Shown: positions 1 through 5,560 of the stretch, in pieces
Layout of the letters: each line of letters begins with the position of its first letter
Position numbering within the stretch: the first letter of the stretch is position 1
From: Desulfobacteraceae bacterium UBA2230
Lineage (GTDB): Bacteria > Desulfobacterota > Desulfobacteria > Desulfobacterales > Desulfosarcinaceae
Assembly (NCBI GenBank): GCA_002348005.1
Contig: DDYQ01000154.1
Location: 1 to 6,093 of the forward strand
DNA length: 6,093 nucleotides
Reading direction: 5' to 3'
Notes under the pieces: model-generated
Databases searched by the model: none
What the model was told of the DNA's origin: nothing
The model's input: the letters and a program-made list of their open reading frames with translations, nothing else
Translations under genes and position numbers: made by a program

Positions 1-211
1 TGATCTCCCGCAGGGTTTCAATCCCGTCCATGCCGCCCGGCATCTTGATGTCCAGCAGAACCACATCGAAGGGGCGCGAAGCCAGCAGCTTGAGCGCCTG
101 CTCCCCGCTGGGCACCCCTTGGGCTTCCAGACGGCGTTTGTTCAGACGATTGACGACCGTTTCCATAAAATCGAGTTCGTCATCGACGACCAGTATGCTG
201 AAGCTGAGCAT
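1..211 (-). CDS. Response regulator, receiver domain (partial, C-terminus outside window)
   Basis: This is the N-terminal 70 residues of a two-component response regulator, read right to left and cut by the window edge. The receiver domain is clear: the acidic pair D10-D11 follows the hydrophobic strand ILVV, and the phosphate-accepting aspartate is D54 in VVLLDIKMPGGMDG. Start choice: ATG at 211-209 lies 4 bases after AGGAGG, and that Shine-Dalgarno overlaps the stop codon of the kinase gene upstream, so the two are co-transcribed and probably translationally coupled. It is almost certainly the phosphorylation partner of the kinase at 220-1887. The output domain is not in the window. It could be a stand-alone receiver or an NtrC-type sigma-54 activator (receiver, AAA+, HTH); the kinase type and the sigma-54 promoters nearby make the latter attractive but unproven. 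Confidence 0.93.
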   Translation of the reverse strand, partial: MLSFSILVVDDELDFMETVVNRLNKRRLEAQGVPSGEQALKLLASRPFDVVLLDIKMPGGMDGIETLREI

Positions 212-1887: not shown

Positions 1888-2000
1888 GACAATACCCTTT
1901 CAAGGACGATCGCAGGGGCCGTAGCAGCCGCGACCCCGCACCTTGCGCGGCTGTCGGGCTGCAGTCTCTCAGAACATCCGATATTCCACATGTCCGTAAG

Positions 2001-2016
2001 AGCAAGTGTCGTGCCA
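2001..2016 (-). promoter_or_regulatory. Sigma-54 (-24/-12) promoter of the kinase/regulator operon
   Basis: Read on the minus strand the site is TGGCACGACACTTGCT, matching the sigma-54 consensus TGGCACG-N4-TTGCW at every defined position, with GG and GC separated by exactly 10 bases. Counting from the -12 base (2002) puts the start of transcription near 1990, giving a leader of about 103 bases before the GTG of the kinase. A palindromic site centred on 2084 sits at about -94. Sigma-54 promoters need an AAA+ activator, so the kinase genes are probably under active, possibly autogenous, control. Confidence 0.82.
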
Positions 2017-2076
2017 CTTTATCTGCTCCGGGTGGTTTGCCGGGCCGCCTGTGGCTCAGATCGTCTGTCGGTTCGG

Positions 2077-2091
2077 TTTACAAAGTGTAAA
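2077..2091. promoter_or_regulatory. Palindromic upstream activator-like site, copy 1 (shared by divergent promoters)
   Basis: The site is TTTACA-AAG-TGTAAA, a perfect 6-3-6 inverted repeat. A second version with the same spacing, TTTACA-CGG-TGTCAA, sits upstream of the transporter operon at 3567-3581; over 17 aligned bases the two share 13. This copy lies between two divergent sigma-54 promoters, about 94 bases from the predicted kinase start and 141 from the stress-protein start, where enhancer-binding proteins of the NtrC family normally bind. The protein that binds it is not known. Confidence 0.6.
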
Positions 2092-2198
2092 GCCGTGGCG
2101 GACTTTTGAAAATATACATGAGCGGGATGAAAAAGTAACCCGGATTCAGTCCGGCGGATTGTCTATGGATTGGACTCGGCCGGGATACCGGGCTTTAA

Positions 2199-2214
2199 TG
2201 GCATCTGTTTTGCA
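2199..2214 (+). promoter_or_regulatory. Sigma-54 (-24/-12) promoter of the universal stress protein gene
   Basis: The site is TGGCATCTGTTTTGCA. GG (2200-2201) and GC (2212-2213) are exactly 10 bases apart; it departs from TGGCACG-N4-TTGCW only at the sixth and seventh bases. Transcription should start near 2225, leaving a 103-base leader. The palindrome centred on 2084 sits at about -141. Confidence 0.72.
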
Positions 2215-2239
2215 GACCGCCAGGTTAGTGCGATTAAAA

Positions 2240-2309
2240 GATCGGCGTCGCCGGCCAGTACTTCGCAGGCCAGAAAGACCGGATCGCCCGGGCGAAGAAC
2301 TCGCCGATC
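2240..2309 (+). other. Long-range stem in the 5' leader of the stress-protein mRNA
   Basis: GATCGGCG (2240-2247) pairs perfectly with CGCCGATC (2302-2309), enclosing a 54-base segment that itself contains the self-complementary CGCCCGGGCG (2285-2294). The closing stem ends a few bases before the Shine-Dalgarno (about 2315-2321). It could stabilise the message or influence ribosome access. It matches no riboswitch class that I recognise. Confidence 0.35.
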
Positions 2310-2327
2310 CTCAAGAAGGAGAGAGAA

Positions 2328-3245
2328 ATGGCAGCTCAGACCAGCAAAAAGCTTTTGATTGCATTGGACGGTTCAAAACAGTCGTTCGAAACGATCAAGT
2401 ACGTCAGCAGCGTGGATCTGTTCCATCAGGATGGATTCCACTTCGTGCTCTTCACGGTTTACAATGCCATGCCTCAGGCCTACCGCGATCTGGGCAAGGA
2501 TCCGCAATTCGCCAAAAGTTTCGGCGAAGTCCAGCGCTGGGAGATCGGAGAGAAAAAGCGCTGCGAAGCCTTCCTCGAACATGCCCAGGCGGCCCTGATC
2601 GGAGCCGGCGCTCATCCCTCGCGGGTTAAGTGTGTGTTGCGCAAGAAAAAGGTGGGGATTGCACGCGATATCATCAAAGAGGCCCACGGCGGCTACAGCG
2701 CGGTAATGATCGGGCGCCGAGGCAGCGGCCTGATGAAAGGCCTCAGTTTGGGCAGCGTGGCCGTCAAGCTGATCGGTGCCCTGACCGACATTCCGCTTGC
2801 GGTGGTGGGCCGGGACGTCCCCATTACCGGCAACATTCTGATGCCCATAGATCTTTCGGTTTATACTGCGCGCCTGGCGGATTTTGCAGCCAGCAAGCTT
2901 GCCGCTCAGGCATACCGGTTAAGCCTTTTCCATGTGATTCGCAGCGAAGATTTTCTAACTGCCGAAGTAGAAGAAATGCTGCGCGCTGAAATCCTCTCCG
3001 CCATGGAGAATGTGCGTGAACGCCTGATCAAGGCCGGCATGTCGCCGGACAGGGTGTCCAGCCGTATCGTAACCGGTCGGCGCAGCCGCGCCATGGCCAT
3101 TATCGAGGAGGCCGAAAGTGAAGGCATCGGCACCATCATGATGGGACGCAAAGGAATGCATACGTTTTCCGATTTCTTCATCGGCCGGGTGAGCAACAAA
3201 GTGGTCCAGATGGGCAAAAAGCAGGCGGTGTGGATCATCAGCTAG
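2328..3245 (+). CDS. Tandem-domain universal stress protein (UspA superfamily)
   Basis: A 305-residue cytoplasmic protein made of two consecutive Usp domains, about 6-162 and 168-304, each with the alpha/beta fold that binds ATP or dimerises. Domain 1 begins LLIALDGS (D14) and has a full ATP-binding motif G129-RR-G132-9 residues-G142-S143. Domain 2 begins LMPIDLS (D175) and carries G273-RK-G276-9 residues-G286-R287, where the usual Ser/Thr after the last glycine is arginine, so nucleotide binding there may be altered. The twofold layout recalls UspE-like proteins, but I give no symbol. Start: ATG at 2328 with a good AGGAG about 7 bases upstream; the ORF stops at TAG 3243-3245. It is transcribed divergently from the kinase, probably from the sigma-54 promoter at 2199-2214, which suggests it belongs to the response governed by the two-component pair. 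The role is likely stress or energy-status adaptation; its partner is unknown. Confidence 0.95.
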   Translation: MAAQTSKKLLIALDGSKQSFETIKYVSSVDLFHQDGFHFVLFTVYNAMPQAYRDLGKDPQFAKSFGEVQRWEIGEKKRCEAFLEHAQAALIGAGAHPSRVKCVLRKKKVGIARDIIKEAHGGYSAVMIGRRGSGLMKGLSLGSVAVKLIGALTDIPLAVVGRDVPITGNILMPIDLSVYTARLADFAASKLAAQAYRLSLFHVIRSEDFLTAEVEEMLRAEILSAMENVRERLIKAGMSPDRVSSRIVTGRRSRAMAIIEEAESEGIGTIMMGRKGMHTFSDFFIGRVSNKVVQMGKKQAVWIIS

Positions 3246-3460
3246 CCGGCTGTTGAAATACGGGCGACGGACCGCCGGCGGGGGCCGGCGCGCACCGCCG
3301 CCCATACATGCCGGAGGCGGGATTCGCCGGCCGGCATAGAGCTCGGCAACTGCTTCCGGGAGTGCTGCCGCACCGCCCGGGCGATCCGGCCCGCGGTTCG
3401 GCCGCGGTCCTGGGCCATGCGCAGCCAGTCGCGCAACACGGGTGCCGCTTGGAAGCGCAA
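3242..3460 (-). CDS. Possible small basic protein, antisense to the intergenic region (doubtful)
   Basis: A 72-codon minus-strand frame starts at TTG (3460-3458), preceded six bases away by a perfect AGGAGG (3472-3467), and ends at TAG inside the same CTAG that ends the stress-protein gene, so the two would be convergent. About the first 45 codons have strongly GC-rich third positions, as the genuine genes here do. The product would be rich in arginine, with a stretch such as LRDWLRMAQDRGRTAGRIAR. I recognise no domain and see no promoter. The local DNA is very GC-rich, which creates open frames by chance, so it may be spurious or the remnant of a gene. Confidence 0.2.
   Translation of the reverse strand: MRFQAAPVLRDWLRMAQDRGRTAGRIARAVRQHSRKQLPSSMPAGESRLRHVWAAVRAGPRRRSVARISTAG
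3273..3290. terminator. GC-rich hairpin just downstream of the stress-protein gene
   Basis: CGCCGGC (3273-3279) and GCCGGCG (3284-3290) form a perfect 7-bp stem with a GGGG loop, 28 bases after the stop codon. No T-run follows, so this is not a classical intrinsic terminator. It may mark an mRNA 3' end through processing, stabilisation or Rho action. Confidence 0.4.
3308..3337. terminator. Second hairpin downstream of the stress-protein gene
   Basis: ATGCCGG (3308-3314) pairs with CCGGCAT (3331-3337), and inside it GGCG (3316-3319) pairs with CGCC (3325-3328), leaving a 5-base loop and a small internal bulge. It has no T-tract. Placed after the 3273-3290 stem, it may help end or protect the stress-protein transcript. 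Confidence 0.35.
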
Positions 3461-3566
3461 AGCCGCCCTCCTAACACCTTTCCCCCCCCTGCCGCTTTGT
3501 TAAATACTTCCGGACGCCTTCCCGCAGCACTTCCGATACCCGCCGAACCTTCGACTGTCGGCTTTC

Positions 3567-3581
3567 TTTACACGGTGTCAA
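3567..3581. promoter_or_regulatory. Palindromic upstream activator-like site, copy 2 (transporter operon)
   Basis: The site is TTTACA-CGG-TGTCAA; seen with its flanks it reads CTTTACAC-G-GTGTCAAG, an 8-1-8 inverted repeat with one mismatched pair. It matches the site at 2077-2091 in half-sites and spacing and lies at about -119 from the transcription start predicted for the transporter operon, the usual range for a sigma-54 enhancer. Two copies, each correctly placed relative to a sigma-54 promoter, argue against chance, although two copies are few. Confidence 0.58.
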
Positions 3582-3613
3582 GTCATCTCGGTTGAACTTC
3601 CGGGCGGCTCGAA

Positions 3614-3626
3614 GCCTGCAGCAGGC
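3614..3626. repeat. Short perfect palindrome between enhancer-like site and promoter
   Basis: GCCTGC-A-GCAGGC is a perfect 6-1-6 inverted repeat centred about 73 bases before the predicted transcription start. It could be an additional regulator site or a chance palindrome. Its sequence is unrelated to the TTTACA-N3-TGTMAA sites. Confidence 0.35.
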
Positions 3627-3666
3627 AAGCCTCAGTCATTTCAGCGATATTTTGCAAGCCATGGCG

Positions 3667-3682
3667 TGGCATAGGTGTTGCT
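3667..3682 (+). promoter_or_regulatory. Sigma-54 (-24/-12) promoter of the transporter operon
   Basis: The site is TGGCATAGGTGTTGCT. GG (3668-3669) and GC (3680-3681) are exactly 10 bases apart, and only the sixth and seventh bases differ from the TGGCACG-N4-TTGCW consensus. Transcription should begin near 3693, giving a leader of about 148 bases before the first gene of the operon. Confidence 0.72.
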
Positions 3683-3840
3683 TTGAACGCTGCTACCCGG
3701 TCGACAAAAGTTTTCGGTATTTGGGTGGAGGCGAAGACATTTCCCACCACTTTTTAAATGAAACATCCGGACAGCACTCCCCAACCGGCGCTGGCAATTC
3801 CGGATGGCCAATGTGAACCAGTGAAAAAGGAGGGTCTTCA

Positions 3841-4140
3841 ATGAGGCGCAAGGTGAGTCAACTGATGATCGCAGTGACAGCCGGCCTGGTGGTAATGGTG
3901 CCGGGATGGGTCCTGGCCGCAGGTGAAAAAGCGGTGGACATCGTGGTGGTGGCGGACACCCGGCGGGTGACGGGTATCATGCGGTACTTCTCCGACCTGT
4001 ACAACACCAATATTCTGATGTTCGCCGTATGGGCGGTCGTGCTGACCGTGGTGATGGGCTGCACGCTCGGTTTCCTGATGGATTTCATCATGGAGCGCAC
4101 CGGCCTGGATCTCCATTCGCGTAAAATCGTCGAACATTAA
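3841..4140 (+). CDS. Small exported single-pass membrane protein, partner of the TSUP transporter
   Basis: A 99-residue protein of no family I can name. It has a basic start (MRRK), a hydrophobic segment at about 8-26 ending VLAAG that resembles a cleavable signal peptide, a periplasmic stretch of about 30 residues including VVVADTRRVTG (35-45), and one membrane helix at about 57-81 (ILMFAVWAVVLTVVMG onward). The C-terminal tail (MERTGLDLHSRKIVEH) is short and probably cytoplasmic. Start: ATG at 3841 with AAGGAGGG about 7 bases upstream. It ends only 18 bases before the TSUP gene, with which it must share a transcript. This suggests an accessory or assembly subunit of the transporter; that role is inferred from position only. 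Without signal cleavage the protein would be a two-helix hairpin. Confidence 0.88.
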   Translation: MRRKVSQLMIAVTAGLVVMVPGWVLAAGEKAVDIVVVADTRRVTGIMRYFSDLYNTNILMFAVWAVVLTVVMGCTLGFLMDFIMERTGLDLHSRKIVEH

Positions 4141-4158: not shown

Positions 4159-5202
4159 ATGGATGCTTCCTGGCTGTACATGTATATGCCCATTGCGGGC
4201 GTGGACATCTTTTGGCCCGGTCTGGTCCTGATCGGTTTTTCGGTGGGCACCATCGGCGGATTTTTCGGGATGGGCGGCGCCTGGATGGTAACGCCGGGTT
4301 TGAACATTCTTGGTTTTCCGATGGCCTTCGCCATCGGTACCGACATCGCCCACATCGCAGGCAAATCGATGGTCTCAACCATTCGCCACTCCAAGTTCGG
4401 CAATGTGGATTACAAACTGGGCTTTGTCATGGTTATCGGTACCATGATCGGTATCGAGCTGGGTGCCCAGATCGTCATGTGGCTGGAACGCCTCGGTCAG
4501 GTGGGCGACGTGGTGCGCTGGGTCTACGTGGTCTTTCTGGCCCTGATCGCCTTCATGGTGTTTGCGGATTACGCCAAGGCGGTAAAGAAGAAGAAGCTGG
4601 GCATTGTCGACGGCGACAAGGGCACCGAAGGTTTTACATGGTACAAGACGCTGCACAAGATCAAGATCCCCCCCATGATGCACTTCAAAGCCGCCGGTAT
4701 CTACTGTTCGGCGTGGCTGCCGATTACGGTCAGCTTCATGACGGGCGTTCTCGCCGGCTTCCTGGGCATCGGCGGCGGACTGCTCCGCATGCCGGCCCTG
4801 ATTTACTTCATCGGCACGCCGACCCACATCGCCGTAGGCACCGATCTGTTCGAAGTCATGATCTCGGGTCTGTACGGTGCCTTCACCTATACTTTAAAGG
4901 GTCGTATTGAACTGGTGGCGGTATTCGTAATGTTGACCGGGGCGGCGATCGGCGCCCAGATCGGCACCGTCGCCACCAAGTACGCCAAAGGCTTCGGCAT
5001 CCGTATCGCCTTCGGCATCGCGGTGCTGTGCTGCATGATTTCGATCATCCTGAAGCAGTACGGGTTCAGTATGTCCTCGGCCATCTTGATCCTGGGCACC
5101 ATCGGCGTGATGTGCATCTACATCATCGCCATCATGTGGAAGGGCGCCGCCCAAGAGCTGCGCGAGAAAAAGGCCGGACAGCGGATCACCACGCACCTGT
5201 AA
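4159..5202 (+). CDS. TSUP (TauE/SafE) family membrane transporter
   Basis: A 347-residue polytopic inner-membrane protein of the TauE/SafE (TSUP) family, whose members move sulfite, sulfonates, thiosulfate or other organic and sulfur anions. The internal duplication of the family is visible: GGFFGMGGAWMVTP (33-46) matches AGFLGIGGGLLRMP (199-212), and IGTDIAHIAG (59-68) matches VGTDLFEVMI (226-235). About eight hydrophobic helices can be drawn, roughly 18-40, 52-74, 88-108, 119-137, 190-212, 227-246, 251-272, 281-298 and 306-327 (the second is weak). The halves are joined by a charged cytoplasmic-looking linker (about 139-176, with KKKK at 143-146), which makes the protein longer than the usual 250-270 residues. 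Start: ATG at 4159, 7 bases after GGAGGGG; ATGs at 4180 and 4186 lack such a site. The substrate is not deducible. In a sulfur-metabolising anaerobe sulfite is plausible, but the family is too broad to say more. Confidence 0.93.
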   Translation: MDASWLYMYMPIAGVDIFWPGLVLIGFSVGTIGGFFGMGGAWMVTPGLNILGFPMAFAIGTDIAHIAGKSMVSTIRHSKFGNVDYKLGFVMVIGTMIGIELGAQIVMWLERLGQVGDVVRWVYVVFLALIAFMVFADYAKAVKKKKLGIVDGDKGTEGFTWYKTLHKIKIPPMMHFKAAGIYCSAWLPITVSFMTGVLAGFLGIGGGLLRMPALIYFIGTPTHIAVGTDLFEVMISGLYGAFTYTLKGRIELVAVFVMLTGAAIGAQIGTVATKYAKGFGIRIAFGIAVLCCMISIILKQYGFSMSSAILILGTIGVMCIYIIAIMWKGAAQELREKKAGQRITTHL

Positions 5203-5221: not shown

Positions 5222-5560
5222 ATGAAATCAAAAATGCTTCTATGGGCCGTAATGCTGATTTGCATGGCGAGCCTGAGCGCCGGATATGCGGCTGCATCCG
5301 AAGTCAGTCAGGGTAAATGCTTGTTGGTTGACGGCGAAAAGAAAGTGATCACGATCGAGGAGTACGACATTCAATTCAGCAAAGAAAATCCGTACGGCAG
5401 GCCGACCGGTGTCGAATCGTCCTATGACGTCTCCAGCGCCAAGATCGGAATCGCGCCCGAACCCGGCGATATCCTGCGCCTGGCCTATGTGGTGAAGGGC
5501 AGTGAAAAAGTGGCCCTGAAAGTGATGAATGTCTCCAAGCAGGATTTGCGCAAGAAATAA
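5222..5560 (+). CDS. Secreted/periplasmic protein of unknown function, third gene of transporter operon
   Basis: A 112-residue protein that I do not recognise. Residues 1-25 form a signal peptide (MKSK, hydrophobic core LLWAVMLICMASLSA, cleavage around GYAAA/S). No lipobox cysteine is present. The mature part of about 87 residues looks all-beta, with alternating hydrophobic strands: KCLLVDG (32-38), KVITIEEYDIQF (41-52), SSAKIGI (71-77), DILRLAYVV (83-91), VALKVMNVS (97-105). That pattern would suit a small beta-barrel or OB-like fold, which is inference. One cysteine (C33) is kept after export. Start: ATG at 5222 after GGGAGGA with about 9 bases spacing. The 19-base gap from the TSUP stop puts it in the same operon, so a periplasmic helper or substrate-binding role for the transporter is possible. 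Confidence 0.9.
   Translation: MKSKMLLWAVMLICMASLSAGYAAASEVSQGKCLLVDGEKKVITIEEYDIQFSKENPYGRPTGVESSYDVSSAKIGIAPEPGDILRLAYVVKGSEKVALKVMNVSKQDLRKK

What the first reader, a model, noticed from the sequence alone, without database searches (positions are those of the whole stretch)
1990..3693. A compact sigma-54 regulon: three -24/-12 promoters and a twice-repeated enhancer-like palindrome
Seen directly: TGGCA and TTGCW blocks with GG-N10-GC spacing occur at 2016-2001 (minus), 2199-2214 (plus) and 3667-3682 (plus), each just upstream of an operon and in the right orientation. TTTACA-N3-TGTMAA occurs at 2077-2091 and 3567-3581, at about -94, -141 and -119 from the three predicted starts. Known: sigma-54 promoters need AAA+ activators that bind such inverted repeats roughly 80-150 bases upstream. 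Inference: one activator controls the sensor genes, the stress protein and the TSUP exporter operon, a circuit I do not recognise as described.
Basis: partly seen in the sequence, partly recalled or inferred. Interest (0 to 1): 0.8.

Follow-up and report, generated by a model that had tools for sequence, protein, structure and literature searches.

The report
Stress-response enhancer shared by sulfate reducers
Two copies of a conserved three-part DNA switch sit upstream of three sigma-54 promoters here, and the same switch recurs beside stress, energy and sulfur genes in many related bacteria, together with one particular regulator that probably works it.

Summary
The window's only three exact TGGCAY-N5-TTGCW boxes are those named (shuffle mean 0.024). 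This tripartite operator recurs about 95-115 bp upstream of sigma-54 boxes in many related genomes, beside universal stress proteins, receiver/Cache-kinase genes, TSUP operons, CBS, CstA and ATP sulfurylase. So the window is one locus of a wide regulon, not a compact circuit. The likely activator is a receiver-AAA+-Fis protein outside the window: 33 of 38 genomes with the strict operator-promoter pattern have it, 40 of 357 others do; two control activators show no association. The receiver beside the window's kinase is single-domain in relatives and is not that activator. No genome is held for the window, so the activator's presence there, binding and transcription are unproven. I found neither operator nor regulon in the listings and passages seen. 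An apparently undescribed regulon of a known kind.

The parts
1..211 (-). response-regulator receiver protein, cut by the window edge
   Evidence: Pfam Response_reg 56.3 bits on 70 aa; orthologues in L003 and L004 are receiver-only ORFs of 156 and 129 aa
220..1887 (-). dCache_1 (below the Pfam cut-off) - HisKA - HATPase_c sensor kinase
2001..2016 (-). -24/-12 box TGGCACGACACTTGCT for the kinase-receiver genes (predicted start 1990)
   Evidence: a minus-strand box (2 mismatches) is at the equivalent place in L003
2066..2070 (-). third half-site CGACA of operator 1 (reads TGTCG on +), on the side facing the kinase promoter
2077..2091 (.). operator 1 palindrome TTTACAAAGTGTAAA, shared by the divergent kinase and usp promoters
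2199..2214 (+). -24/-12 box TGGCATCTGTTTTGCA for usp (predicted start 2225)
   Evidence: a plus-strand box (2 mismatches) is at the equivalent place in L003
2328..3245 (+). two-domain universal stress protein
   Evidence: Pfam Usp 87.8 bits, 2 stretches
3556..3560 (-). third half-site CGACA of operator 2 (reads TGTCG on +), on the side away from the TSUP promoter
   Evidence: GACA is kept at this place in 5 of 5 close relatives examined (L001-L004, L027)
3567..3581 (.). operator 2 palindrome TTTACACGGTGTCAA
3667..3682 (+). -24/-12 box TGGCATAGGTGTTGCT for the TSUP operon (predicted start 3693)
   Evidence: a box is aligned at this place in the relatives
3841..4140 (+). p99, small protein without a Pfam match, first gene of the TSUP operon and conserved with it
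4159..5202 (+). TSUP (TauE/SafE) family transporter
   Evidence: Pfam TauE 144.9 bits
5222..5560 (+). small protein with a weak DUF4881 match below the cut-off
   Evidence: conserved behind TSUP in many loci

Best explanation
The window holds two enhancers and three sigma-54 promoters of a genome-wide regulon. The enhancer is a 26-base tripartite operator, TTTACA-N3-TGTAAA-N6-YGACA. It is most likely bound by a two-component, NtrC-type activator (receiver-AAA+-Fis, about 476 aa) encoded elsewhere beside its own histidine kinase. Inferred mechanism, following established knowledge of NtrC-type activators: on a signal the kinase phosphorylates the activator, which assembles on the operator, loops out the roughly 60-120 bp of DNA between operator and box to contact RNA polymerase-sigma-54 waiting at -24/-12, and opens the promoter using ATP. 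One operator between the divergent kinase and usp genes would serve both; a second serves the TSUP operon. From the target list I infer an energy or electron-acceptor stress response. Shown: sequence elements, their recurrence, geometry, gene neighbourhood and co-occurrence. Inferred: binding, activation, signal, and presence of the activator in this organism.
For: Operator and boxes beat shuffles in the window. In 12 related genomes 56 of 71 palindromes examined (of 77 listed; 6 were not fetched) have an outward-facing box 40-260 bp away, against 100 of 3200 random positions; leaving out the 10 TSUP sites by which 10 of the 12 genomes were chosen it is 46 of 61. The joint pattern occurs in 38 of 395 genomes of the phylum and its reversed control in 0. 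The third half-site was in none of those patterns, yet in 58 aligned sites G, A, C, A occupy positions 23-26 in 49, 52, 57 and 55; around the 71 palindromes exact YGACA occurs in 42 flanks at offset 6 and in 1 flank at all other offsets 0-15 together. Operator-to-box distances group near 98 and 109, about one helical turn apart (for the sites the pattern itself limits the range). Activator: 33 of 38 motif genomes against 40 of 357 others have it at 61% identity or more, Fisher p 1e-22; in 16 of those 33 a joint site lies within 12 kb of the activator gene, in 7 within 228 bp past its 3' end; the 12 genomes all have it (3, 9). Targets.
Against: No genome is held for the window, so the activator is not shown in the same organism. 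40 of 73 genomes with the activator lack a strict joint match, and 5 of 38 motif genomes gave no activator. Genomes are related, so the Fisher p is not a true probability. The window's kinase box is only 62.5 bp from the operator centre, outside the main groups, and both plus-strand promoters have the third half-site on the far side, as in only 8 of 104 scored cases elsewhere. At the TSUP promoter a palindrome is found within 450 bp in only 12 of 79 loci. Four Desulfovibrio-type genomes (G411-G414) have the activator at 56-60% identity but 0 or 1 palindrome each. Of the 12 best activator loci fetched, 5 show a tripartite operator in the 3.5-4.4 kb held and 7 do not.
Confidence: 0.78

Rival explanations
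1. The operator is read by another sigma-54 activator, such as PrsR of the PEP-CTERM system or another NtrC-type paralogue; the co-occurring protein is only a phylogenetic companion.
For: The inner part TGTAAA-N6-YGACA is 17 bases long, and the PrsR motif is a 17-mer ending in TTTACA upstream of a sigma-54 site (section read; its logo is a figure I did not see). 5 of 38 motif genomes lack the favoured activator. PrsR over its cut-off is present in 3 of the 12 genomes, the Desulfatitalea-type relatives G002, G003 and G005.
Against: PrsR over its cut-off is in 4 of 38 motif genomes and 49 of 357 others, and a paralogue control in 1 of 38 and 30 of 357; 9 of the 12 genomes have no PrsR over the cut-off. 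The PrsR spacer averages 62.8 (maximum 92) and its targets are PEP-CTERM genes. Joint sites lie within 12 kb of the favoured activator's gene in 16 of 33 genomes.
Confidence: 0.12
2. The palindrome is the site of an ordinary repressor or one-component regulator unrelated to sigma-54, lying near sigma-54 promoters by chance.
For: Short palindromes of this kind serve many regulator families (general knowledge); 15 of 71 sites have no box at the set threshold.
Against: 56 of 71 against 3.1% at random positions, a narrow distance range, and orientation of the third half-site towards the box (45 proximal, 7 distal, 8 neither of 60 site-box pairs).
Confidence: 0.04
3. The operators and boxes are chance matches.
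For: The loosest box scan finds no excess in the window.
Against: (0 of 200 and 0 of 500 shuffles) and conservation in relatives.
Confidence: 0.01

Closest known systems
Sigma-54 regulome of Desulfovibrio vulgaris Hildenborough (PMC4641369: abstract, passages and sections 5, 6, 7 and 20 read; PMC3333781: passages read)
   Same: Two-component sigma-54 activators control TSUP operons there; DVU0110 and DVUA0057 bind upstream of DVU0132-DVU0133; DVU2956 sites have three half-sites; DVU3305 controls genes some of which have UspA domains.
   Different: The operator described here and a shared USP / kinase / TSUP / ATP-sulfurylase regulon are not in what I read; most regulons there have one to four operons. 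Motif logos are in figures and supplements that I did not see, so motif identity cannot be excluded.
NmpRSTU of Myxococcus xanthus (PMC11841059: abstract, passages and section 22 read)
   Same: NtrC-like response regulator with sigma-54 driving CBS-domain and universal stress proteins and its own sensor genes, linked to oxygen limitation.
   Different: Operator GCGCA-N5-TGCGC in two copies, and oxygen-utilisation targets such as cbb3 oxidase; orthology to the activator here was not tested.
PrsK/PrsR PEP-CTERM regulon (PMC1569441: abstract, passages and section 7 read)
   Same: Receiver-AAA+-Fis activator, TTTACA half-site, sigma-54 box downstream.
   Different: Spacing, targets and phylogenetic profile, and no second arm TTTACA-N3 ahead of the 17-mer is described; the activator here is below the PrsR model cut-off (426.4 and 432.4 of 502.6 bits).

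Membership tests
sigma-54 (-24/-12) promoters | GG-N10-GC core within TGGCAY-N5-TTGCW | tested here: met
   3 exact matches, shuffle mean 0.024
sigma-54 (-24/-12) promoters | mapped start about 12 bases past the -12 GC and dependence on rpoN | not testable with these tools
   needs RNA 5'-end mapping and an rpoN mutant
NtrC-type enhancer-controlled regulon | conserved operator at a fixed range upstream of sigma-54 boxes | tested here: met
   56 of 71 sites against 100 of 3200 random positions; spacing groups
NtrC-type enhancer-controlled regulon | candidate activator with receiver, Sigma54_activat (GAFTGA) and Fis-type HTH domains | tested here: met
   Pfam on L101 7772-9199, GAFTGA in its sequence; co-occurrence
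NtrC-type enhancer-controlled regulon | the activator is present in the window's own organism | not testable with these tools
   no genome held; present in the genomes of the relatives L001-L004 and L027, in that of L001 as an incomplete match split over two pieces
NtrC-type enhancer-controlled regulon | the activator binds the operator | not testable with these tools
   needs EMSA or DAP-seq
PrsR / PEP-CTERM regulon | activator scores over TIGR02915 | tested here: not met
   432.4 and 426.4 bits, cut-off 502.6
PrsR / PEP-CTERM regulon | operator profile matches PrsR distribution | tested here: not met
   PrsR in 4 of 38 motif genomes against 49 of 357 others
NtrC nitrogen regulation (TIGR01818) | activator scores over the family cut-off | tested here: not met
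   502.8 and 484.9 bits, cut-off 558.6
DVU0110 regulon of D. vulgaris | activator is the orthologue of DVU0110 | not tested
   no D. vulgaris Hildenborough protein with locus tag was obtained; the two Nitratidesulfovibrio genomes searched have a 60% identical relative

The most novel reading that the evidence does not exclude
Many Desulfobacterota-type bacteria, including sulfate reducers, share an undescribed global energy-stress regulon: one two-component sigma-54 activator, through one tripartite operator, coordinates sulfur handling (ATP sulfurylase, TSUP and DASS-type transporters), carbon entry (CstA, acyl-CoA ligase, PEP-synthase-like protein), stress proteins (USP, CBS, PhoU) and a family of sensor kinases with free receivers that may feed back on the activator.
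Probability: 0.5. Interest if true: 0.75.

Novelty: new member of a known kind. Interest (0 to 1): 0.6.

Why it matters
The sigma-54 network of a sulfate reducer that I found in print is that of D. vulgaris, mostly with small regulons, while in one survey Desulfobacteria carry the largest numbers of activator genes (PMC12316311, passage). This gives one of those activators an operator and a target list that can be tested at once, and suggests that ATP sulfurylase, the entry step of sulfate reduction, is under sigma-54 control in some lineages.

Tried and rejected
Adjacent receiver as activator: rejected, because the orthologues in L003 and L004 are receiver-only. PrsR as activator: rejected on cut-off and co-occurrence. 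NtrC: below cut-off. Another NtrC-type paralogue (L004 17588-18988) as control: no association. Rfam on the window: nothing over the gathering scores. Alignment of eight Desulfovibrionales-type TSUP upstream regions: no TTTACA-N3-TGTAAA operator visible, nor by pattern in the same eight loci. Searches for print on this operator or regulon; none of the listings pointed to it, but only open-licence PMC text was searched and no supplements could be read. Phasing: a period scan of all distances gave only broad values of 0.32-0.48 for 9.5-12 bp, so I claim grouping, not a measured period. The D. vulgaris counterpart of the activator was sought by protein search but no named Hildenborough protein was in the list.
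Full report
Observation. The boxes are the only exact TGGCAY-N5-TTGCW matches in 6093 bases (3; shuffle mean 0.024; 0 of 500 reach 3). The stated distances follow if the T of TGGC is -26.

A third half-site. Both palindromes carry CGACA six bases from the same arm, on the minus strand: TGTCGGTTCGG-TTTACAAAGTGTAAA (2066-2091) and TGTCGGCTTTC-TTTACACGGTGTCAA (3556-3581). The complete pattern has exactly these two matches, 0.01 expected. I first saw this element not in the window but in other genomes: 58 sites found with a pattern lacking it show G, A, C, A at positions 23-26 in 49, 52, 57 and 55 of 58. Around 71 palindromes in 12 genomes exact YGACA occurs in 42 flanks at offset 6 and in 1 flank at offsets 0-5 and 7-15 together. 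In the TSUP upstream region GACA is kept at that place in all 5 close relatives looked at (L001-L004, L027).

Surroundings. From the window edge: a receiver protein and a Cache-type histidine kinase on the minus strand, a two-domain universal stress protein, then p99, a TSUP transporter and a DUF4881-like protein. 80 loci with TSUP relatives were fetched, the best 80 of 206, mostly deltaproteobacterial by title. Only L003 (Desulfatitalea BRH_c12) shows kinase, USP and TSUP in the same order; several contigs are too short to tell. In L003 the divergent kinase-usp region has a minus box at 7998, a palindrome TTTACACGGTGTAAG at 8069 and a plus box at 8245, the window's arrangement. In L047 a palindrome and a box lie upstream of the kinase orthologue. 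In L027 a palindrome lies between the kinase orthologue and a divergent Cache kinase, with a perfect box facing the latter and only a 3-mismatch one facing the orthologue. L004 has one palindrome between the kinase orthologue and p99-TSUP, with boxes on both sides. In L007 and L036 the stretch upstream of the orthologue showed no palindrome and no box facing it (all).

TSUP promoters. A palindrome variant lies within 450 bp of the p99 start in 12 of 79 loci (L021 had no p99 start), and in 10 of these a box starts 92-127 bp further on. A weight matrix built from those sites finds weaker copies at similar spacing in L001, L027 and L030 (circular, since seeds came from the same set), and strong ones further upstream, 458-683 bp from p99, in L022, L053, L057, L058, L062, L063 and L069, which I did not follow. 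Many TSUP operons have a box but no recognisable palindrome, so the operator is not universal for TSUP.

Genome-wide. Twelve genomes (ten chosen for a TSUP palindrome, two as near relatives) hold 77 places with TTTACANNNTGTNAA. I fetched 71; six on other contigs of G007 and G012 were left out. 56 of 71 have an outward-facing box (up to 2 mismatches) 40-260 bp away, against 100 of 3200 random positions; without the 10 TSUP sites used to choose genomes, 46 of 61. In 395 genomes drawn from the phylum, the joint pattern occurs in 38 (59 matches) and its reversed control in none. Distances from operator centre to the -24 T, for 104 site-box pairs of both sets with a recognisable third half-site, group at about 96-100 and 104-114; for the second set the pattern itself limits the range. 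The window's values are 62.5 (kinase), 120.5 (usp) and 98.5 (TSUP).

Targets. Next genes in the 12 genomes include USPs, Cache kinases, free receivers, CstA, an Na/sulfate-type symporter, ATP sulfurylase, an acyl-CoA ligase-like protein, a PPDK_N protein, PhoU, CBS, ankyrin and p99-TSUP proteins. For 58 of the 59 joint sites the two following genes were compared with references from the window and the 12 genomes: 12 receivers of one family, 5 of them followed by a Cache kinase; 8 USPs; 6 p99/TSUP, 3 of them behind a USP; 3 CBS; 2 symporters; 2 TSUP paralogues; single cases of ATP sulfurylase, PhoU, acyl-CoA ligase, ankyrin and others; 19 of 58 had no hit or no gene called. Two sites (both of G009) match references taken from themselves. 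The window's three units thus fall in the commonest classes.

Activator. The window's receiver is not it. In the fetched stretches a receiver-AAA+-Fis protein of about 476 aa recurs near operators: L101, L105, L145, L153, L156, and 3-4 kb beyond TSUP in L053, L059, L063, L074 and L078. It is below the cut-offs of NtrC and PrsR. At 61-79% identity it is in 73 of 395 genomes, and 18 more have a 50-55% relative. 33 of 38 joint-pattern genomes have the former against 40 of 357 others; none of the 38 has only the latter. In 16 of the 33, a joint site is within 12 kb of the gene, in 7 within 228 bp past its end. Controls: a paralogue 1 of 38 against 30 of 357; PrsR 4 of 38 against 49 of 357. In L256-L258 the order is PPDK_N-like protein, kinase, activator, USP, CBS; in L257 and L258 a palindrome and a box lie just past the activator gene, in L256 only a box. 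Relatedness of genomes makes the Fisher value an overstatement, but linkage and the half-site do not depend on it.

Against. Five motif genomes have no such activator even at E 1e-110; 40 genomes with it lack a strict match; four Desulfovibrio-type genomes have it at 56-60% but 0 or 1 palindrome; of the 12 best activator loci 5 show a tripartite operator in the stretch held and 7 do not. PrsR is present in the three Desulfatitalea-type relatives G002, G003 and G005, so it cannot be ruled out in the window's organism by absence. The kinase promoter of the window is unusually close to the operator. The usp and TSUP operators are reversed relative to the usual orientation (8 of 104 elsewhere).

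Mechanism and physiology. By established knowledge of NtrC-type proteins, the activator would bind, oligomerise and loop to sigma-54 polymerase. The target list suggests energy, sulfur or acceptor stress; this is inference. NmpR of Myxococcus controls CBS and USP genes, is linked to low oxygen and has a different operator, a working analogy only.

Novelty. Sigma-54 control of TSUP operons by two-component activators is known in D. vulgaris. I did not find this operator, this activator-operator pairing or this regulon through; motif figures and supplements of the two D. vulgaris papers were not seen.

Noticed in passing
L006 694-3405(-), L008 6610-9165(-), L022 6506-9001(-), L025 6687-9185(-): ORFs of 831-903 aa matching a regular expression for the AAA+ activator (ELFGH) and without the Fis-like end of the others lie upstream of and divergent from the TSUP operon; possibly a local activator of another kind. 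Domains were not checked.
   Followed up: no
L065, L073, L077 upstream of TSUP: Conserved GCGCAA/TTGCGC-type repeats instead of the operator, resembling the NmpR consensus GCGCA-N5-TGCGC.
   Followed up: no
L101 9445-9888, L162 5242-5652 and 12 of 58 joint sites: A family of free receivers with ILIADRNxxVRxFLxRE-like starts is the commonest gene behind the operator, in 5 of 12 cases followed by a Cache kinase like that of the window.
   Followed up: partly
L256, L257, L258: Conserved cluster PPDK_N-like protein - kinase - activator - USP - CBS, in L256 and L258 followed by a second USP, a ligase-like protein and a receiver.
   Followed up: partly
L132 5545, L137 6001, L186: Operator and box upstream of ATP sulfurylase, the entry enzyme of sulfate reduction.
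   Followed up: partly
L022, L053, L057, L058, L062, L063, L069: Strong palindromes 458-683 bp upstream of p99, outside the stretch scored for boxes; they may serve another gene or promoter.
   Followed up: no
window 5222-5560: Small protein behind TSUP with weak matches to DUF4881 and to ExtJ of selenite/tellurite reduction, both below cut-off.
   Followed up: no
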